Program-made: the position numbers and the translations under genes
Notes under the pieces: model-generated
Seen by the model: the letters and a program-made list of their open reading frames with translations, nothing else
The model's database searches: none
Told to the model about the DNA's origin: nothing
IMG/VR virus record: IMGVR_UViG_3300009502_002955
Span: 1-44,647 of that record
From: a virus
Strand: one strand, 5' to 3'
Length of the DNA stretch: 44,647 nt
Shown: one piece after another, positions 968 to 44,647 of the stretch
How the letters are laid out: every line of letters starts with the position of its first letter
How positions within the stretch are numbered: the first letter of the stretch is position 1

Positions 968-1042
<75 letters not shown>

Positions 1043-1172
1043 AGTCTGTAGTTCTTAATAATATCAATGGTTTCAGAGAATTCGAAAGAATAACTGAGAC
1101 AAATTGAGACAAAAAGTAGCGGCGCTCATTGTTGTTTTTTTTTACCTGGCGAGGCATAAAAAAACAAAAGCA

Positions 1173-2363
1173 ATGGAAAATTATAAAACCGCGAAATTAT
1201 TTGATGCCGGTGGAAATTTAGATGACCGCTGGTTTGTTTATTACTCTTTTAGATCACCCGAAACCGAAAAATTCCGGCGTTTTCGTATTTGGATCCCGCA
1301 GAAGATCATTACAGCCTCTGGAAGAAGGGATCGGGCGCACGAGGTGATCAAATCCATTAATCAGAAATTAAGGCATGGATACAATCCCTATGCGCACCTG
1401 GAGAAGAAATACACTTCTCTATCTGCGGCCATGAAGTATGTTCTGTCGATAAAGTCGACGTCATGCCGTAAGCGAACGTCACACACATACGACAGCATGG
1501 TGAAAATATTCGACGAGTGGCTCGAATTGAAAAAAAGGAAAAACATGCCAGTGGATGATTTCAATTATTATCATGCGCAGGAATTCATGGATTACACAAA
1601 GGCCACGCTGAAAAACGGAAACCGCACTTATAATAACAGGGTAACAGCAATGCGGACCATTTTTAAAGTGTTGGTTAAACGAGAATGGATTATTGTCAAT
1701 CCATTTGACAAAGTTGACCGGTTTCCAAAGGAAGAGGCTGAAATCGTTGCTTTCACCATCGATGAACTAGTGCTCATGCAACAACACCTTCCCTCCTGGA
1801 ACTACGACTTGTATGCATGTGCCTGCCTTATCTTCTATTGCTTCATTCGTCCACAGGAAATTGTCCGGTTGAGAATTTCAAATATTTACCTGAAAAATCG
1901 TTGTATTGTGATCCCAGGGCGGGTATCTAAAAATAAAAAACAGGAGGTAGTGCAGATTCCCGATGCCCTGATGCCGGTGCTGATGAAATTAGATCTCAAT
2001 TACCCTGGTGATTTTTATGTCTTCGCAAAAAATCAGCTTCGGGGCCCAAAGGAATATGCGCCCACCAGGATGGCGGAAGCATGGAGAGAATTTGCTGATC
2101 ATTACGGAATTGAGAAAAATATTTATTCGCTGAAACATACCGGCGTAGGTATGGCGATTGAAAGCGGGATCAACATCCGGGACCTGCAGCTGCAGCTGCG
2201 CCATCACAATCTTGAAATGACCCAGGTTTACCTGGACAAGTTCAACAAGCGGCCATCAGAAAAGCTATCTACTAATTTTCCTGACCTTGCCCAATTAGCC
2301 AGAAATACCGGACCGGTACGATCACCGCTCCCTGCTCATATTTATAATCCGGGTCAATCATAA
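1173..2363 (+). CDS. int: tyrosine recombinase / phage integrase
   Basis: A 396-residue site-specific recombinase, expected to integrate and excise the prophage. It has an N-terminal arm-binding part (about 1-90), a SAM-like core-binding domain (about 90-190) and a catalytic domain. Visible active-site positions are R226 in FIRPQE, a lysine near 255, H344 in QLRHHNLEMT and the nucleophile Y353. Where classical integrases have HxxR, this one reads YSLKHT, so tyrosine and lysine replace H and R. ATG at 1173 is preferred; the longer frame from 1104 depends on a TTG and adds an implausible leader. It is the only long plus-strand phage gene on this side. Confidence 0.93.
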   Translation: MENYKTAKLFDAGGNLDDRWFVYYSFRSPETEKFRRFRIWIPQKIITASGRRDRAHEVIKSINQKLRHGYNPYAHLEKKYTSLSAAMKYVLSIKSTSCRKRTSHTYDSMVKIFDEWLELKKRKNMPVDDFNYYHAQEFMDYTKATLKNGNRTYNNRVTAMRTIFKVLVKREWIIVNPFDKVDRFPKEEAEIVAFTIDELVLMQQHLPSWNYDLYACACLIFYCFIRPQEIVRLRISNIYLKNRCIVIPGRVSKNKKQEVVQIPDALMPVLMKLDLNYPGDFYVFAKNQLRGPKEYAPTRMAEAWREFADHYGIEKNIYSLKHTGVGMAIESGINIRDLQLQLRHHNLEMTQVYLDKFNKRPSEKLSTNFPDLAQLARNTGPVRSPLPAHIYNPGQS

Positions 2364-36479: not shown

Positions 36480-36606
36480 AAAATATTCTATATATTTATG
36501 AAGTCTACTTGTCAAAAAGAAAAAAATAATAAATAATATATATATGTGTATGGATATCAACTTAATAACTCATTTTTCCGGTACTTATGCACTATAATAA
36601 TTTAAG

Positions 36607-36728
36607 ATGAAAAGGGGGCGGCGGGGTGAAAAAGATCCCGGAAAGGAGAAATGAATAAGGAATTCGTACTGATCCGGCTGCCGCCGGTCCAGTACTCTAA
36701 ACATAAACACCTGGCTTTCGCCAGGTGA
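36607..36728 (+). CDS. two tiny overlapping frames with a strong SD
   Basis: ATG 36607 to TGA 36654 encodes 15 residues (basic, MKRGRRGEKDPGKEK). ATG 36651 to TGA 36728 encodes 25 residues and follows GAAAGGAGAA. The two overlap as ATGA. The second stop lies inside the 36708-36727 hairpin. This could be a leader-peptide arrangement; it may equally be chance. Confidence 0.25.
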
Positions 36729-36790
36729 AGAACGAAAAGAGATGACACCAATCATTACCTTCAGGGTAATCATTCATCCTGGGTGAGATA

Positions 36791-37030
36791 ATGAGGTCAA
36801 ATATTAAGAAACAAAATAACGTTATGAGCTGGGAAGACTATTTGCCTGAAGATTTACAGGAACTTTATGAAATTCATGATTACAAACATGCTGCTGCAAT
36901 ATTAAGTAAAGAATTCCCTTTAGAATTCGCAGAAATATGTTTAGCCTTACGAACGTTCCGATTTTCCAAAAATGATATTCTGCAGGAAGGAGGTAATGAA
37001 AGCAACATCCCTAAATTATTTTCCGATACA
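36791..37030 (+). pseudogene. N-terminal remnant of a BglII-type restriction endonuclease
   Basis: From ATG 36824 the frame reads YLPEDLQELYEIHDYKHAAA, FAEICLALRTFRFSKNDIL and GGNESNIPKLFSD. I recognise this as the start of BglII-family endonucleases, where a DNA-recognition and catalytic part of more than 150 residues should follow. After SDT the frame runs into antisense methyltransferase sequence (to 37189). The catalytic region is absent, so no activity is expected. Assigned from memory of the family. Confidence 0.6.
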
Positions 37031-37344
37031 AATAAATTCAGGCATGGTGTGGGTTTTGGAGAAGTAAGCCAGTCATCATCAACACCATCTGGAAATAAGA
37101 AATTACTTGTTTCCTTTCCCCATTTACTCACATTCTTTATTAATTTATCGTCAGTTGGATCAACCCAAACATGTGACCACCCTCCGTAGCACAGATTTTG
37201 GTAAAATGTATGAGCAGCCGCAACATCACGTTCCAATGCAGAGACACATTTCAATCCTGCCTGTTCAAATCCCAATGATAATCCACCGCATCCAGCAAAG
37301 AACTCAGCATAAGTGTTTTTAAAATCAGGGAAATTGATCTGCAT
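37030..37344 (-). pseudogene. N-terminal remnant of a cytosine-5 DNA methyltransferase
   Basis: The frame begins MQINFPDFKNTYAEFFAGCG and has SAM-binding motif I, FFAGCGGLSLGFEQAG. The Dcm-type sequence extends through VDPTDDKLIKNVSKWG to TPCLNLFV. The catalytic PCQ motif and everything after it are missing; the frame then continues antisense through the endonuclease remnant (to 36880). No methylation activity is expected. Its start codon and upstream region are intact, so a short peptide may still be made. Confidence 0.8.
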
Positions 37345-37366
37345 AAATGTTTATGATATTTGAAAA

Positions 37367-37636
37367 TTACGATGTGAAATTTTCCTCCAATTTTATAATT
37401 CTATTTTCAAGCATTTCCAGAAATGCCACCAGTTTAAGGTTGTCGTCTAATCCTAAACCAATGGACATTTTCTGGAGTCTGGTAATTCGATTGAATTCCC
37501 ATTTAGCCTCTGTTTCTTTCTTGAAGGCAAGTAATTCTTCTTTATGGTCCTCAAAACCCTCCGTCTCTTCAATGTCATAACAAGGATCATACAACCAATC
37601 ATTTTTTAAATATGTTATTTCTTCTGGTGTTTTCAT
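37367..37636 (-). CDS. small hypothetical protein
   Basis: An 89-residue acidic, helical protein, FKKETEAKWEFNRITRLQKM being the best-defined helix. It heads towards the methyltransferase remnant in the early minus-strand run. Not recognised. Confidence 0.6.
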   Translation of the reverse strand: MKTPEEITYLKNDWLYDPCYDIEETEGFEDHKEELLAFKKETEAKWEFNRITRLQKMSIGLGLDDNLKLVAFLEMLENRIIKLEENFTS

Positions 37637-37645
37637 GTTTTACAA

Positions 37646-37840
37646 TTATTTGATTATTAATTCAGTTTCCGGATCAATTACCCATTGTCGACAATCGTCA
37701 AGAACGATCAGAAGCTTTCCTTTATGTTCAACCGGGCGTCCTCTTATGATGTCACAATCGACTACCTTTATTACCGTTCTCCATTTCCTTTGCCCTTTTT
37801 GTTTGAATTGTTGACCTGGTTGTAATTCTTTTGCTTTCAT
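37646..37840 (-). CDS. small hypothetical protein
   Basis: A 64-residue protein from ATG 37840, with KGQRKWRTVIKVVDCDIIRG and a C-terminal beta-like LLIVLDDCRQWVIDPETELI. A longer frame to 37945 would cover the small membrane gene upstream. The ATG overlaps that gene's stop (ATGA), which supports this start. It looks like a small beta-barrel domain. Confidence 0.6.
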   Translation of the reverse strand: MKAKELQPGQQFKQKGQRKWRTVIKVVDCDIIRGRPVEHKGKLLIVLDDCRQWVIDPETELIIK

Positions 37841-37923
37841 GGCTTCAGTATTATGCTCGCAATAATGACCGTCAGCACGATGGCCAAAAAGTAAGCTGTG
37901 AATTTGATGTCTTCTTTTTCCAT
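37837..37923 (-). CDS. 28-residue single-span membrane peptide
   Basis: ATG 37923 to TGA 37837: a charged start MEKEDIKF, then a membrane helix AYFLAIVLTVIIASIILKP. It shares ATGA with the next gene and begins 3 nt after the zinc-ribbon gene, so it is fitted exactly into the early operon. Function unknown. Confidence 0.6.
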   Translation of the reverse strand: MEKEDIKFTAYFLAIVLTVIIASIILKP

Positions 37924-37925
37924 AA

Positions 37926-38434
37926 CTATGCTGTTTGAAAATCACGATTCAACGCTGGCCTGCCTCTCTTGATCGGGATCTGTTGCCTTATTTCTGCAAG
38001 TTTCTTATCCAGGGCAGCATGATCATGCTCCACCGGGGTTGTCTCAATCTGTGGCGGTGGATCCAGAGAAAGTTCTTTTGTTTTCACTTGTACAAAATTT
38101 GGGTTACAATCTTTTTTGCAAAATCTTTGCTTGTTATGAGTAGGCATAAATGGTTTGCCGCACCCTTCACAAATCTTCTCACTGAAGGTCCTGGTTACCT
38201 TGTTTTTAACCTGTGATTCAGGGGGGGGGGTATAACAGTTACATTATCAGCATGTTGCACAGTTGGCGCCTGTAGCTTCCTTTTTACTTGTTCGGAATGA
38301 CACCTCTTTACTGCATCAACGATCATTGATGCAGTGGAAATACAGGTAATTGCAGTCTCAATATTTTTCAATTTCAGCTGATAGGACTTTTTCAGTTCCT
38401 CCAGGGCAAGAATAATCTCAGTTTCTGTTTTCAT
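37926..38434 (-). pseudogene. zinc-ribbon gene split by a G10/C10 tract
   Basis: The first part (ATG 38434, stop near 38195) begins MKTETEIILALEELKKSYQL and reads to VTVIPPP at the C10 tract. With one more C the frame continues as PPESQVKNKVTRTFSEKI and then CEGCGKPFMPTHNKQRFCKK-D-C, a complete C-x2-C/C-x3-C zinc ribbon, with an AT-hook-like KRGRPALNR near the end (stop at 37926). At C10 the product stops after RLKTR and loses the ribbon. This is either a contingency (phase-variable) locus, a slippage-expressed gene, or a length error in the tract. Confidence 0.65.
38221..38230. repeat. G10 homopolymer inside a coding gene
   Basis: Ten consecutive G on the plus strand (C10 in the coding strand), the longest G/C run in the window. 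A change of one base switches between a truncated product and a product with the zinc ribbon. Confidence 0.9.
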
Positions 38435-38444
38435 AAAATGAGGA

Positions 38445-38714
38445 TTAATTGACGTTTTTTGCAACTTTATTGGCTTTTTTTGCAACTTTATTGACGTTTT
38501 TTGCTTTATAATGCTTTGATTTTTGTGGTTTGTGCTTTTTCATCTCTTTGCGTTCACCCGGAGTCCGGAACATCTCTTCGCTGAAGCGGAAATAACACCG
38601 TTCTGCAGTGCAGTCAATAGTGCATGCTTTTGAACTGTCATACTTGCATTTTGAATTTGCCGGTGGAATGACCCTGTTTGAAATGGCCAGTGGATGCGGT
38701 TTCATTTTGTCCAT
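38445..38714 (-). CDS. small Cys-rich protein with lysine-repeat tail
   Basis: An 89-residue protein with CKYDSSKACTIDCTAERCYF (four cysteines, possible zinc site) near 22-42. The C-terminus repeats K-N-V-N-K-V-A-K or K-A-N-K-V-A-K, encoded by near-identical 18-24-bp DNA repeats (38450-38500). ATG follows the primase stop by one base. Likely binds nucleic acid. Confidence 0.65.
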   Translation of the reverse strand: MDKMKPHPLAISNRVIPPANSKCKYDSSKACTIDCTAERCYFRFSEEMFRTPGERKEMKKHKPQKSKHYKAKNVNKVAKKANKVAKNVN

Positions 38715-38716
38715 CT

Positions 38717-41700
38717 TTAAAAATTTGTACCGAAACTTTCATTGCCAATCGTAAAAAACTCAACTCCCCCACGTTTATCATCCCCTCCATGCTTGCCGAA
38801 TTTGTCGATGATCTGAGGGTTGAAGAATGCTCCATGATATTCACACCAGGATACCATCTTTTTCTTGAACCGGTGGGGGGTCATGTATTTACGCTGAGTC
38901 GGGGTCTTCTCAAGGAACCCGTTGTAAAGCTCTGCCCTGGGAATAGGTACATTCATGTTCTGAACCACCGCGGAATTGACACTCTCCGGATCTTCCACGT
39001 TGAAGTACTCCCCTGCCCAGGTCAGGAAGTCTTCACCGATGAATTGGCGCAGGCGGCGCTGATCCAGGCGCTCTGTCGGTGGCTGGATCAGTCCGGAGTG
39101 ATTATACCCCCACCCGAGATCTGCAGCCCGGAAATACAGCCTCAGGCAGTCTGCCATGAAGTTGTAGAACAGGTTCCACTGGCGCTCGTCCCATTCATCG
39201 AAGAAGTTGATCCCGAATTCATCCACCGGCTTGTAGTCTTCATTGTAATAATCGCTGTAGGCGATCAGCGCCTGACGGTCCTTAAATGAAGAGCTGCTGC
39301 CGTTGATGGCGTGGTTGGTTGTGAGATACAGCTTTGGGGTGTCACGTTCCGAAAGTGTGAATTTCTTCTGCCCCTTGGAGTTCACGGTAAGCTTCCCGGT
39401 GATCAGCGGGAAAAAGAATTCGAAATCAATATTGGCGCGAACATCATCGAGGAATATATTGTCCGTTTTTTCGGTCACTTCTTCGAAGATGAAAGGATCG
39501 TTCTCCAGGTCCTTCGATTTAGCGCCAATATAGCATTGAGGCACCACTTCCCCAACGGCAAAGCCGACAATTGACTTTCCCGTCCGGCCGTTGCTCTCCC
39601 CTACCTCACTGAGCTTGCCATCCATGGCAATGACCGCCTTTTCACATGATTTATCGCGGTATTTGTGCAGCAGATATCCGATGGCTGTCATTTTTGACAC
39701 CATGTGAAGGTTTGTCTCGCACTTTTCGTCCATGGTCCGCAGGTCATGCTCCAGTGGCTTTCGGGTTTTCTGATGCTGAATCTTGTTCCAGAAGAATTCA
39801 CCGGTGTTATACAGGAACCTGGCAAAATGACATTCCTTTGCCTCCTGGGTGAATTCAACCTCGAACTGTCCGATGGCTGAATCATATTCCATGGGATCCT
39901 GATTATTCTTCAGGATGCTGTCTAAATCAATCCGATTTACGCTGATCATTTCTTTTCCGATCAGCGTGGCATCGAAGTCATTTACACGGTCTTTCCATAC
40001 GTAGTTTTGCAGATCACTCAGCGGTTTTGATTCGATTCCATCGGCGGTGATCTTCCAGTACTGGTTTTTAAAAAACAAGTATTGATGCCGTTTGTCGGCA
40101 TATTCAAACACCGGCTTTACGAAATCAATGTTTCCCAGGGAATCGGGACCGAAGTACATTTTACCACCACGATAAAGCATGTCCATCACTTCAACAAGTT
40201 CTATCTTGCTGTCGGCGGCCAGGATGGCCTTGCTGAATTCCATGATGTAGTCGCGGATCTGATAAGATTCTTTTATATCCACAATCTTATCAACGATCTG
40301 ACACAAGGCATACTGCCTGCCTGCCATTTCAATACGTCCGAATCCACGGCGGTGAAGGAAGTTATAAGCGTACAGGTATCGGAAACGGTACTGGACATAA
40401 TCATTGCCGTTGCGGTCTTGCTTGGTGATCTTTTCCCAAAACTGTTCATCCTCCTGCAGGGGCTGGGCAGGAACGAGCTTCCCGGCCTCATCAAATTTCC
40501 ATTTATGGCGGCCAATGAAGAATTCAGGGATATTCTGAAGTATATCTTTGTACTTCAGCGAAAATGAATTCGAATCCTGCAGGCTCCAGTACTCGAGCAG
40601 CTTCAGATCCGATACCGTGGTGATCTTGTTAATCTGAATATATTTCCCCTGGCCATCTTTTTCATTGATGGCAGTCTTGATATCATTGAAAAGGTCATTT
40701 TCAGCATCCCGGAGCGTTCCGGCCAGCAAATCATCAATGCCTTTCTCGAACACCGGGATCGTTTCATCCTTGCGGATGTAAGCAAAGTAAATCTCCAGGT
40801 AGATCCCCATGTTGACAAACGTCTTGAAGTAATCCCGGAAATTCCTGACAGCCCAGTAGAATGAGTATGGCCGCTGATCCACCCTGGCCCCGGGCTTCAG
40901 GTCGTTGCTCAGGGCATCCCAATCGGCATCGAGCACAAACACTACCTCTTCCACCTTGCATGCCTGTACGATCAGCTGCAGCTCGTAGGGAAGTTTGTTA
41001 TTATGACCAATGTTCTGGATTCCCATCACGCCAACGGATGTCAGCCCATGCTTGCAAGCCTTGATGGCTTTCTTCTCCCCTTCCTGGATAAACAGCCGTT
41101 TGATCACCCTGCGGTTGCGGTATGCTTCCCGAATCTCTTCCGGGAAGAAAAGATGGGATCCCGATCCTGAAGGCGATGCATACTTCATCGGCCGGCCGCT
41201 CTTGTCGTGATGCAGATCCGGGTTCTGCCAACGGATCCGGAACAGATGCTCGAGCTTGCTTCCCTTGGGCTTGGTGAACAGTACCGGCTTTCCCTCCAGG
41301 TCATAGTACCAGATGATCATGTCATCACCTGGTGCGATCTTTCCATACTGGTCCCTGGTACCGGCTTCAAAAACATCAACAACCTTCTTGGTGTTTTCGT
41401 CGATGATCACCGTTGCCTTCTGATCAGCATCCGACAGGCCACTGGAGGCAAGTTGCCGGTCACGGAAAGTGAGTTCTTTCTTCCCGTTTTTCTTCTGTGG
41501 TCCTTTGGGCTTTTCTTCGTAGTCAAGTACCACATTGTATTTTTCTGCCAGGTATTTTATTGCATCCGGATACGCTATGTTTTTCCTATCCATGATGAAA
41601 TTGATGGGCGATTTCCCACCGTATTCACAGGAGAAGCATTTATAAATCCCTTGGGCAGGCGTTATAATCAACCCCTTGCCTTTGCCTGACATCCCACAAT

Positions 41701-41818
41701 TTGGGCACTTTGTTGAGAGACTGGCGCCGGATCGCTCGAGCTTGCAGAAGTCCGATATTACTTCTTCTACCTTTGTAATTGACAAAATCTTCTGAATGCA
41801 ATCCTGGGTGATCTTCAT
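38717..41818 (-). CDS. primase-helicase replication protein
   Basis: A 1033-residue protein. A CHC2 zinc finger is formed by C38, C41, C61 and C64. A TOPRIM domain follows with E247 in QEGEKKA and D297/D299 in VLDADWD. Near 745 is a Walker A, GESNGRTGKS, and later NIFLDDV as Walker B, typical of SF3/D5-type phage helicases. One chain thus primes and unwinds. It is the largest early gene and implies a phage-encoded replisome start, fitting the iterons to its left. Confidence 0.9.
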   Translation of the reverse strand: MKITQDCIQKILSITKVEEVISDFCKLERSGASLSTKCPNCGMSGKGKGLIITPAQGIYKCFSCEYGGKSPINFIMDRKNIAYPDAIKYLAEKYNVVLDYEEKPKGPQKKNGKKELTFRDRQLASSGLSDADQKATVIIDENTKKVVDVFEAGTRDQYGKIAPGDDMIIWYYDLEGKPVLFTKPKGSKLEHLFRIRWQNPDLHHDKSGRPMKYASPSGSGSHLFFPEEIREAYRNRRVIKRLFIQEGEKKAIKACKHGLTSVGVMGIQNIGHNNKLPYELQLIVQACKVEEVVFVLDADWDALSNDLKPGARVDQRPYSFYWAVRNFRDYFKTFVNMGIYLEIYFAYIRKDETIPVFEKGIDDLLAGTLRDAENDLFNDIKTAINEKDGQGKYIQINKITTVSDLKLLEYWSLQDSNSFSLKYKDILQNIPEFFIGRHKWKFDEAGKLVPAQPLQEDEQFWEKITKQDRNGNDYVQYRFRYLYAYNFLHRRGFGRIEMAGRQYALCQIVDKIVDIKESYQIRDYIMEFSKAILAADSKIELVEVMDMLYRGGKMYFGPDSLGNIDFVKPVFEYADKRHQYLFFKNQYWKITADGIESKPLSDLQNYVWKDRVNDFDATLIGKEMISVNRIDLDSILKNNQDPMEYDSAIGQFEVEFTQEAKECHFARFLYNTGEFFWNKIQHQKTRKPLEHDLRTMDEKCETNLHMVSKMTAIGYLLHKYRDKSCEKAVIAMDGKLSEVGESNGRTGKSIVGFAVGEVVPQCYIGAKSKDLENDPFIFEEVTEKTDNIFLDDVRANIDFEFFFPLITGKLTVNSKGQKKFTLSERDTPKLYLTTNHAINGSSSSFKDRQALIAYSDYYNEDYKPVDEFGINFFDEWDERQWNLFYNFMADCLRLYFRAADLGWGYNHSGLIQPPTERLDQRRLRQFIGEDFLTWAGEYFNVEDPESVNSAVVQNMNVPIPRAELYNGFLEKTPTQRKYMTPHRFKKKMVSWCEYHGAFFNPQIIDKFGKHGGDDKRGGVEFFTIGNESFGTNF

Positions 41819-41841
41819 AATGGGGGAATAGTGGGGATGAG

Positions 41842-42255
41842 TTACTTGTTGATGGAAAGCGGATGCTTTGGAGATACCTGTACCTGATCATCAGGATTGA
41901 TGACTCCTTCTACCTGTACCTGTCCTGATTTAATCAAATCGATCAGGTACCGGGCGCGGGCTTCGGCCTCGCTGGTGAAAGTCTTCCACTTTTCATCACT
42001 CATCTGCACCTTGAAGTATCTGTTTAGATATTTGTGGACCTTCATTTCATTGAAAAAACCGAAAGGAATCATGTGTCCTAGTTCGGTGACGTTGTAGGCA
42101 GGATATCCGGTCTTGTACGGCTCGAGTTTATCTTTGAGGACAAATCTTTTCTGCCCGGGGATAAGTTGCCAGTACTGTGATGCTTTCCAACGGATTCCCA
42201 GATCACCGATGGCTTTTGATGTTTCGGGAAATGTATAATTGAGAATTTTATTCAT
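41842..42255 (-). CDS. hypothetical early protein
   Basis: A 137-residue protein containing WKASQYWQLIPGQKRFVLKD and FGFFNEMKVHKYLNRYFKVQ. Overlaps the upstream gene as ATGA and lies 23 nt before the primase gene. Not recognised; probably a replication accessory by position. Confidence 0.65.
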   Translation of the reverse strand: MNKILNYTFPETSKAIGDLGIRWKASQYWQLIPGQKRFVLKDKLEPYKTGYPAYNVTELGHMIPFGFFNEMKVHKYLNRYFKVQMSDEKWKTFTSEAEARARYLIDLIKSGQVQVEGVINPDDQVQVSPKHPLSINK

Positions 42256-42740
42256 AATTCAGATTCGGTTTTAGCTTGGATTTTTGTTTGTGGATAGTTC
42301 TTCAGTTCCCTTTTGCAGAACACGATCATGTCAATGAGCTTGCTCTCGCTGGATGAATGGGATGGGTTGCCAGGTGTCGGGAGGATCCTGCGCATGTCTT
42401 CCTCCAGGACAAGGATCACCTTGCATATCTCCTCGAGCTTTTTATCTGCAAGCCACTGATTATATTTCGAGCAACGATCAAGGGAGGCGATTTTTGTTTC
42501 CGTACGGTAAAAATCATGGTGACCGGTTTCGAACAACACCCTTGCGTGTGCAACGTATTTTGAGAACAAAAGCAGTATATAGCTGCGTTTGCTGGAAAGA
42601 ACATATTTATCAGCATCACGCCGGTCGGTAAAGTTCCCCCGGTCCGTTTTGGTACCATGGCCGAGATCCCACCGCATTTCAAATGAGACAATGCCCGTTT
42701 TCGGGCACACGTCGAATGTTTTCACTTCGAACATCTGCAT
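42252..42740 (-). CDS. hypothetical early protein
   Basis: A 162-residue protein, largely helical, with LFETGHHDFYRTETKIASLD and IDMIVFCKRELKNYPQTKIQ. No known motif. Part of the early operon running from the LuxR-type regulator to the primase. Confidence 0.6.
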   Translation of the reverse strand: MQMFEVKTFDVCPKTGIVSFEMRWDLGHGTKTDRGNFTDRRDADKYVLSSKRSYILLLFSKYVAHARVLFETGHHDFYRTETKIASLDRCSKYNQWLADKKLEEICKVILVLEEDMRRILPTPGNPSHSSSESKLIDMIVFCKRELKNYPQTKIQAKTESEL

Positions 42741-42743
42741 AGG

Positions 42744-42989
42744 TTATGAATTATGACGTTTTAGTAGTTCTGTATTGATGGCAATAATCAATTCACTAAG
42801 GCGTGTAAGTTTTTCTTTAGAAGAAAGCTCATGAATCTGCTGATTTCCGGGGAATGGACGATCATAATGTTCTATATCGTCAATAACCTGATCCATATTT
42901 GATCGAATTTCTTTTTCCCTGGCATAATATGACTGACAGGTTAAAATCAGATCGGGATCACTCATTAAAGAAAAGGTTGTATGGCTCAT
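42744..42989 (-). CDS. small hypothetical early protein
   Basis: An 81-residue protein from ATG 42989, helical, with YYAREKEIRSNMDQVIDDIE. The longer frame to 43055 runs back into the previous gene and is not preferred. Confidence 0.6.
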   Translation of the reverse strand: MSHTTFSLMSDPDLILTCQSYYAREKEIRSNMDQVIDDIEHYDRPFPGNQQIHELSSKEKLTRLSELIIAINTELLKRHNS

Positions 42990-43002
42990 ATTTTTTGTTT
43001 TT

Positions 43003-43302
43003 TTACCTGGCGAGGTCTTCTTCTTCCGGATGGATTGGCCGGGGTTTGGAAGCAAGTTCCCTGCTCTTGCGGTGCAGGGAACTTGCGAAGCGTTTTTGCG
43101 CTTCGTTTAAATCAAATTTTTTCCCGTTTTCATTATGAAATGACTCATGGGCAGTAGGTGATCGGATCATAGGGTCGTTTGTGCTGATGCTTTCAACTGA
43201 ATCCGCAGAGTCTTGAACCGGTCCAGTTTCCTGGGCATTAAAGCCAAACAGGTCAAGTTGGGTTGGATCCGGAGTTTCCGGTCCATTTGGGATGATATCC
43301 AT
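43003..43302 (-). CDS. small hypothetical early protein
   Basis: A 99-residue acidic, mostly disordered protein (TPDPTQLDLFGFNAQE). QLDLFGF resembles a beta-clamp-binding motif (QxxLF), a plausible link to the host replisome, but this rests on one short match. The start overlaps the regulator stop as TAATG. Confidence 0.6.
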   Translation of the reverse strand: MDIIPNGPETPDPTQLDLFGFNAQETGPVQDSADSVESISTNDPMIRSPTAHESFHNENGKKFDLNEAQKRFASSLHRKSRELASKPRPIHPEEEDLAR

Positions 43303-43856
43303 TATAAAAGATTATTTTGTCCGGCGAATGATGCGATGCCCGCCCTGGTATAGCAACCAAGTTTGCGGGAGATGTGCTTGAGTTGTGTGTCAACGGTGAA
43401 TTTTGACCGGTGAGAAGTGTTTGCGATCATTTTGTTGCTGTGATCATGGGCAACCTCCCGGATCAGTTCAGCTTCGCGGTTGGTGATTGAGCCATGAACG
43501 GCTGCAGGGAATTTGCAGAGCAAACCATCGGCGGAGCATGGCCGGTTTCCACATTCCCAGTACTCGGTATTCAGGATCCCGTCGGAGGTGATATCGGCCT
43601 GTTTGGTAAAATCCCCAAACTGGCAATGGATAAACTGTTTGATCTGTTCGATCGGGTCCTTGATGCCAAGGATTTCCAACCCTTTCAATACTTTCGGATC
43701 ATTGTCCATTACATCGCGCAACCTGGCGGCCAGGGCGACGTCAAGTTCACAAAAAAGGCGTTGGTGTCCATCTTCGACGAACTGGATTTCCCCGTTCAGC
43801 AGAAAGAACTCAATGCCGGCAATCATGGCTTCTGGAATTGTTGTTGACTTTTTCAT
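43302..43856 (-). CDS. LuxR-type HTH regulator with Cys cluster
   Basis: A 184-residue protein. The C-terminal 60 residues are a LuxR/GerE HTH: SITNREAELIREVAHDHSNK, then TVDTQLKHISRKLGCYTRAG. The N-terminal part has C-x4-C and a later C (CGNRPC...LLC), possibly a metal site. No receiver domain. It is the first large gene after the early promoter, suggesting an early or middle transcription regulator. Confidence 0.75.
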   Translation of the reverse strand: MKKSTTIPEAMIAGIEFFLLNGEIQFVEDGHQRLFCELDVALAARLRDVMDNDPKVLKGLEILGIKDPIEQIKQFIHCQFGDFTKQADITSDGILNTEYWECGNRPCSADGLLCKFPAAVHGSITNREAELIREVAHDHSNKMIANTSHRSKFTVDTQLKHISRKLGCYTRAGIASFAGQNNLL

Positions 43857-43878
43857 GTGTGTGTGGTTTGGATATAAT

Positions 43879-44121
43879 TCAGGATTGAATTATTCGGTTT
43901 TCAAGGCTAGCCTGATAGTCGCTATATTCCTCCAGGTATGCAATGGCTTCTTCGATAATGATGGTATTGTACCTTCTATCATCCGGATTGAAAACAGCCT
44001 GGATATACCGCAATGAAAACATCAGGTGGGGTGGTTTATTGAAGATCCTGAGCTGGATCGTCTTGGCGCTTCCGGAAGGAAGCTTTTGGGCAAGTTTTTT
44101 AAGTATCTTCTTATCTATCAC
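43879..44121 (-). CDS. small early protein, Cro-position
   Basis: An 80-residue protein from GTG 44121. The frame extends to 44211, but that would cover the promoter and operators. The sequence KKILKKLAQKLPSGSAKTIQ and LRYIQAVFNPDDRRYNTIII suggests a small DNA-binding protein. It is the first gene to the left of the operator region and faces the repressor gene, the place of Cro in lambda-like switches. Confidence 0.6.
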   Translation of the reverse strand: MIDKKILKKLAQKLPSGSAKTIQLRIFNKPPHLMFSLRYIQAVFNPDDRRYNTIIIEEAIAYLEEYSDYQASLENRIIQS

Positions 44122-44179
44122 GTTAAATGGGTATTTACTTTGTGCGTTTATTGTGTTATATTTGTTCGTAATCAGGCCG

Positions 44180-44245
44180 CAAATATAAAGTATATTTATC
44201 ACCAAAGGCAAGTATATTTATCATTTTAAGTAATATTTTTTATCA
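44180..44245. promoter_or_regulatory. immunity-type operator/promoter region
   Basis: AAGTATATTTATCA occurs at 44188-44201 and 44210-44223, a 22-bp period, with a degenerate third copy at 44228-44245. The first repeat touches the minus-strand -7 box TATATTTG (44180-44187). A repressor bound here would block early minus-strand transcription. Likely bound by the XRE protein encoded to the right. Confidence 0.7.
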
Positions 44246-44272
44246 ATCTAAATAATAATAACGCCTAACTGA

Positions 44273-44647
44273 GTGGACTTCAATAAGATATTTGAGGAAA
44301 TTAAAAAAAGAAGGTTTACTTTCCGATCCGTTGCTCAAAGTGTTGGAATTTCGGAGCCTGGTCTAAGGGGTACCATAAAAAACGGCACTCTTAAAATAGA
44401 AGACCTGGAACTAATTTCGAAGAAAATAGAAGTTCCAATGACTTACTGGTGGGAAGATGAACCTCTTCAAGTTAAGGACCGGGAAATTGAGTTTGATATC
44501 GGGAAAAGTGTAGGGATGAAACCCTTAATAAAGGAGAATAAGGAGTTAAAGAATCGTGTAAAGCTTCTTGAAATGACCCTTGAAAACCTGAATGATCAGA
44601 TAAATGATATGAAACAAAAAACAGGTTATCGCAAAGCACATACCTAA
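44273..44647 (+). CDS. XRE-family repressor-like protein
   Basis: A 124-residue protein starting at GTG 44273. Residues about 1-55 are an HTH: RSVAQSVGISEPGLRGTIKN, then KIEDLELISKKIEVPM. The rest is a leucine-zipper-like coiled coil (about 85-117), suited to dimerisation. There is no S24 autoprotease, so induction cannot work by RecA-stimulated self-cleavage. The BRO antirepressor at the left end offers an alternative. The stop codon coincides with the end of the window. Confidence 0.8.
   Translation: MDFNKIFEEIKKRRFTFRSVAQSVGISEPGLRGTIKNGTLKIEDLELISKKIEVPMTYWWEDEPLQVKDREIEFDIGKSVGMKPLIKENKELKNRVKLLEMTLENLNDQINDMKQKTGYRKAHT

What the first reader, a model, noticed from the sequence alone, without database searches (positions are those of the whole stretch)
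37926..38434. G10 tract as a possible phase-variation switch of a zinc-ribbon protein
At ten C the gene stops soon after the tract; with one more C the frame continues into a perfectly formed C-x2-C/C-x3-C zinc ribbon and an AT-hook-like end. The ribbon codons begin well before any start codon, so the downstream part depends on the frame. Homopolymers of this length change by slippage at high rates.
Basis: seen in the sequence. Interest (0 to 1): 0.6.

Follow-up and report, generated by a model that had tools for sequence, protein, structure and literature searches.

The report
Slippery C-tract splits prophage zinc-ribbon gene
A run of ten C's in a small prophage gene of an uncultured Bacteroidales bacterium puts the gene's second half, a zinc-binding domain, out of frame; a sister phage carries the same gene whole across an eight-C run, so the run probably works as a slippage-driven on/off switch of a kind already known in bacteria.

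Summary
On the coding (minus) strand a C10 run at 38221-38230 is the only G/C run of 7 or more in the window. At C10 the protein is 79 aa. At C8, C11 or C14 it is 168-170 aa, with a C-x2-C/C-x3-C ribbon. The ribbon half has no start codon ahead of it.

It is one gene. A sister phage (L002, 80% identical primase next door) carries one ORF that matches both halves and reads in frame through C8 at the same place. That sister gene seems to break at another run (A9). Codon usage favours the ribbon frame after the tract. A second assembly, a prophage contig in a Bacteroidales MAG, also shows C10, so a plain assembly slip is less likely, though the reads may be shared.

Context favours slippage. The MAG carries two more coding G/C runs that are out of frame (ice-binding G13, CheB/CheR C15; a related genome has C14 in frame). 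C runs of 8-10 exceed most expectations in related phages, and one differs C9/C8 between 99.6% identical phages.

Switching itself was not shown. Fixed decay, read error and frameshifting remain. The mechanism is known; this is a new member.

The parts
38195..38434 (-). 5' part of the gene as assembled: 79-aa ORF (ATG 38434-38432, TAA 38197-38195), helical N-terminus
   Evidence: matches N-half of L002 ORF (E 8.5e-5)
38221..38230 (-). C10 homopolymer (G10 on +) that sets the reading frame
   Evidence: same length in MAG contig L089/L091
37926..38220 (-). 3' part of the same gene in the ribbon frame, reached at n = 8, 11 or 14 C
   Evidence: codon usage (0.004 of out-of-frame controls score as high); matches the same L002 ORF (E 3.5e-3)
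38106..38171 (-). C-x2-C / C-x3-C zinc ribbon
   Evidence: PHROG ribbon profiles, best E 3e-6
37956..37967 (-). RGRP, AT-hook-like basic core (by eye only)
   Evidence: no Pfam match
38717..41818 (-). upstream primase (DnaG-type zinc ribbon, PF01807), the anchor used to find relatives
968..1039 (+). tRNA gene next to the integrase; likely attachment site (inference)
1098..2360 (+). tyrosine integrase; with the host genes in the MAG contig it marks a temperate phage

Best explanation
37926-38434 (-) is a single accessory gene of a temperate Bacteroidales phage. It encodes a helical N-terminus, a proline linker coded by the C tract, a zinc ribbon and a basic tail. Strand slippage during replication changes the C tract's length. 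C10 is the short state: 79 aa, no ribbon. C8, C11 and C14 are the full state: 168-170 aa. The tract therefore acts as a stochastic switch of the protein's C-terminal half, the part that probably binds nucleic acid. Shown here: the gene's unity, the frame arithmetic, and the in-frame C8 orthologue. Inferred: that length changes happen often and both ways in the population, that the ribbon binds DNA or RNA, and that selection keeps the switch.
For: Single-ORF orthologue in L002 in frame through C8 at the same place. Frame arithmetic. Ribbon frame codes by codon usage while the C10 frame does not. C10 also in the MAG prophage contig, 8,074 bp identical. The carrier MAG has two other coding tracts at out-of-frame lengths, and one of them (CheB/CheR C15) is in frame at C14 in a related genome. 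Related phages: 18 G/C runs of 8 or more against 3-8 expected from order 2-4 models (16 from order 1), with a dip at length 7; C9/C8 difference between 99.55% identical phages, the only indel in 9.8 kb.
Against: No second tract length was seen for this gene in its own population; both sequences found show C10. The gene is rare (one orthologue), and the orthologue itself seems out of frame after an A9 run, which could mean a gene in decay. Most published SSR switches act on surface or DNA-modification genes.
Confidence: 0.5

Rival explanations
1. A simple, effectively fixed slippage mutation in a dispensable prophage gene: a young pseudogene, with no selected switching.
For: The gene is absent from most related phages and prophages; L002's copy also looks frame-broken, at A9.
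Against: The tract position is shared with L002 although the rest of the gene is only about 35-39% identical; the downstream half shows no further stop or loss of coding bias.
Confidence: 0.25
2. Sequencing or assembly error: the true tract is C11 (or C8) and the gene is whole.
For: Long G/C homopolymers are error-prone; the independence of the two assemblies' reads is unknown.
Against: Two different contigs agree on C10 with no difference in 8,074 bp; no other gene shared with L002 is split in the window.
Confidence: 0.14
3. Recoding: -1 ribosomal frameshifting on C-CCC-CCC, or RNA polymerase slippage, makes both proteins from the C10 allele (and from A-AAA-AAG in L002).
For: Both the window (C10) and L002 (A9) need exactly a -1 shift; L002's A9 reads GTA AAA AAA AAG in frame, the classic A-AAA-AAG heptamer.
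Against: No stimulatory structure downstream (z -0.07, -0.16 and -0.89); L002 is in frame through its own C tract, so no conserved shift site there.
Confidence: 0.08
4. Two separate genes, the second starting at ATG 38147-38145.
For: An ATG exists at 38147-38145.
Against: It would start inside the ribbon and lose the first two cysteines. L002 has a single ORF.
Confidence: 0.02

Closest known systems
C-terminal phase variation by poly-G tracts in Helicobacter canadensis (PMC2823697)
   Same: Long G/C homopolymer inside a gene; tract length decides which C-terminus follows, while the N-terminal part is always made
   Different: There the tract lengths vary in the read data of one culture; here no reads could be examined, the gene belongs to a prophage, and the tract sits mid-gene
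Poly-G/C contingency loci of Neisseria and Campylobacter (e.g. PMC5320596, PMC6321876)
   Same: Slippage at a G/C run changes frame and so the product
   Different: Mostly near the 5' end of surface or modification genes; here a small, ribbon-bearing phage protein of unknown role
Phage zinc-ribbon families phrog_1333, phrog_13750, phrog_1271 (HNH endonuclease)
   Same: C-x2-C ... C-x3-C ribbon
   Different: Only about 37 residues of the ribbon match; no HNH or catalytic part. No full-length relative beyond L002, no solved relative, no fold match

Membership tests
Simple-sequence-repeat phase-variable gene | Homopolymer of mutable length inside the coding region whose length sets the frame | tested here: met
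   C10; only n = 8, 11, 14 give the full protein
Simple-sequence-repeat phase-variable gene | Both frame states encode real parts of one gene (intact ON form known) | tested here: met
   L002 single ORF in frame through C8; codon usage
Simple-sequence-repeat phase-variable gene | Several tract lengths within one population or between near-identical genomes | not testable with these tools
   No reads; the two near-identical sequences available both have C10. Seen for another tract of related phages, L076 C9 / L077 C8
Simple-sequence-repeat phase-variable gene | Reversible switching of a phenotype | not testable with these tools
   needs culture or reporter work
Programmed -1 ribosomal frameshifting gene | Slippery heptamer plus a stimulatory downstream structure, conserved in orthologues | tested here: not met
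   no structure beyond shuffles; the orthologue needs no shift at its C tract
HNH endonuclease with zinc ribbon | HNH catalytic domain | tested here: not met
   only ribbon residues 14-43 match phrog_1271; no HNH Pfam family

The most novel reading that the evidence does not exclude
This group of Bacteroidota phages, and the Bacteroidales family that carries the prophage, keep C8-C15 tracts in coding regions as a shared contingency system. The prophage ribbon gene is one member, so phage early functions and host genes (CheB/CheR, ice-binding protein) switch by the same slippage.
Probability: 0.25. Interest if true: 0.6.

Novelty: new member of a known kind. Interest (0 to 1): 0.4.

Why it matters
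Slippage switches are known mostly from mucosal pathogens and their surface genes. A prophage gene of an environmental Bacteroidales that toggles a nucleic-acid-binding-type domain would extend them to phage early functions. The tract statistics and the CheB/CheR case give a concrete, read-testable claim that this host family uses poly-C contingency loci. It also warns annotators that the 73-aa and 79-aa ORFs here are one gene.

Tried and rejected
Pattern and peptide scans of IMG/VR for relatives of the gene found only L002 as a full-length relative. The reference phage and plasmid collections gave no relative of the whole gene. 393 genomes of the order gave only unrelated ribbon proteins plus the same prophage. 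Prophages in family genomes with related primases lack the gene. A frameshift suspected at 892-1140 proved to be a tRNA next to the integrase. L006's ribbon protein has a similar layout but no measured homology to the N-half. A common 'TAC8-9' motif acting as an origin or regulatory site was considered: contexts differ and 33 of 50 records have no such run, so it was dropped. The AlphaFold model of the L002 ORF (pLDDT 70, pTM 0.32) shows one N-terminal helix (residues 3-45), a poorly ordered ribbon, and no PDB match.

Full report
What is in the sequence. The window is an IMG/VR virus record. A G10 run lies at 38221-38230. In the minus-strand gene it reads ATA CCC CCC CCC CTG AAT and ends in TAA a few codons later (79 aa). 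Changing n shows that 8, 11 and 14 C give 168, 169 and 170 aa, all with CEGCGKPFMPTHNKQRFCKKDC, while every other length from 6 to 13 gives 70-80 aa. It is the only G/C run of 7 or more in the window and is not expected by chance (0.005-0.07). The ribbon frame has no ATG, GTG or TTG before an ATG inside the ribbon.

One gene, not two. The neighbouring primase led to 12, then 80, related viral loci. One of them, L002 (IMGVR_UViG_3300045970_001080, primase 80% identical, genome largely collinear with the window, 127-bp end repeat), carries the gene a few hundred bases after the primase, as a single ORF. It reads ...VEPLIPPPADEK..., coded ATA C8 TGCA, then CKECKKMFHPSCNRQMYCSDEC. Searched against 22,229 stop-to-stop frames of all loci, each window half finds this one ORF outside the window (E 8.5e-5 and 3.5e-3). 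The in-frame length in L002, C8, is one of the two nearest lengths at which the window gene would also be open. A codon-usage test on genes shared by the two phages places the upstream frame and the ribbon frame among coding frames (0.000 and 0.004 of out-of-frame controls score as high); the continuation at C10 scores like non-coding.

Is C10 real? The Bacteroidales MAG contig CAIVAT010000036.1 (AM-2014_bin-2870) matches window 36574-44647 over 8,074 bases without one difference, C10 included, and runs 2,363 bases past the window's end, into genes that do not look like phage genes. The two contigs end at different places, so they are separate assemblies, but I cannot tell whether the reads are shared. 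From its name the MAG probably belongs to the stratified-lake dataset PMC8121793 (Lake Alinen Mustajarvi sampled 2014-2015, Illumina NovaSeq, Megahit); that attribution is inference. Among genes shared with L002 this is the only one found split in the window.

Context: G/C tracts elsewhere. The carrier MAG has seven G/C runs of 9 or more in 5.2 Mb. Besides the prophage tract, two lie in otherwise open genes at an out-of-frame length. One is an ice-binding-like gene split by G13, whose relatives read straight through without a tract. The other is a CheB/CheR gene with C15 just after its apparent start; a relative in another genome of the same family has C14 at the same place, in frame. Most family members lack that CheB/CheR tract. 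In 0.97 Mb of related phage DNA, G/C runs fall from 71 (length 6) to 4 (length 7), then rise to 18 of length 8-10. Expected for 8 or more: 3.0, 5.7 and 8.3 with Markov order 2, 3 and 4, and 16.0 with order 1. The size of the excess therefore depends on the model, but no model gives the dip at 7. Several such runs sit in the first codons of small genes. In L017 'ATG AAT TTA C8' would need C7 or C10 to enter a 70-aa frame; in L070, L060 and L073 the C9 is in frame. Two 99.55% identical phages (L076, L077) differ by one indel in 9,784 bp, and it is C9 versus C8.

Mechanism. The best-supported reading is a slippage-prone tract that sets the frame of the second half of a small early-region protein. 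The short form keeps the N-terminal helix predicted for the orthologue; the full form adds a ribbon and a basic tail. That the ribbon binds nucleic acid is inferred from the motif and its PHROG relatives. Reversibility and selection are not shown. The L002 gene itself appears to leave frame at A9 after the ribbon (the -1 frame is coding by codon usage, 0.002; its C-terminal likeness to the window is not significant, p = 0.105), and it carries a (CA)12-like repeat directly before its start. This fits either a gene rich in mutable repeats or one under weak constraint. Recoding is less likely: there is no downstream structure beyond shuffled controls and the orthologue is in frame through its C tract.

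Comparison. It works like the C-terminal phase variation described in Helicobacter canadensis, where poly-G tracts inside genes vary in read data and change the C-terminus (PMC2823697). The membership features of a phase-variable gene are met for repeat, frame logic and orthologue; within-population variation and phenotype could not be tested. So: a new member of a known kind, not yet proven to switch.

Noticed in passing
G002 (carrier MAG) contig C99 = L152, and L181: CheB/CheR gene with a poly-C tract right after its apparent start: C15 out of frame in the MAG, C14 in frame in another genome of the same family; most other family copies lack the tract. Looks like a host contingency locus.
   Followed up: partly
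G002 (carrier MAG) contig C96 = L147:1099-1903: Ice-binding-like (PF11999) gene split by a G13 run; relatives L191 and L195 read LTLDGQNDPNAIFIF / LTLDAQGNPNALFIF with no tract.
   Followed up: partly
related viral loci L002-L088: G/C run lengths are bimodal in 0.97 Mb of related phage DNA: 383, 71, 4, 10, 7, 1 for lengths 5-10, often in the first codons or at the ends of small genes.
   Followed up: partly
L076:2233 and L077:730: Two 99.55% identical phages differ by one indel in 9,784 bp, a C9 versus C8 tract.
   Followed up: partly
L017:3860-4070: ATG AAT TTA followed by C8: the 70-aa frame behind it is reached only at C7 or C10; possible 5' switch in a related phage.
   Followed up: partly
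L002:9457-9956: The orthologue carries three repeats: about 12 CA units just before its ATG, C8, and A9, after which coding bias moves to the -1 frame.
   Followed up: partly
window 36880-37344 (-): Truncated cytosine-C5 methyltransferase: only the first part matches PF00145; L005 has a 358-aa version.
   Followed up: no
window 968-2360 and 44647: tRNA plus tyrosine integrase at one end; the MAG contig continues 2,363 bp past the window's end into genes that look bacterial, so this is a prophage.
   Followed up: partly
window 38445-38510 (-): Short tandem repeat (GTCAATAAAGTTGCAAAA-like) forming the end (NVNKVAKKANKVAKNVN) of the gene just upstream.
   Followed up: no
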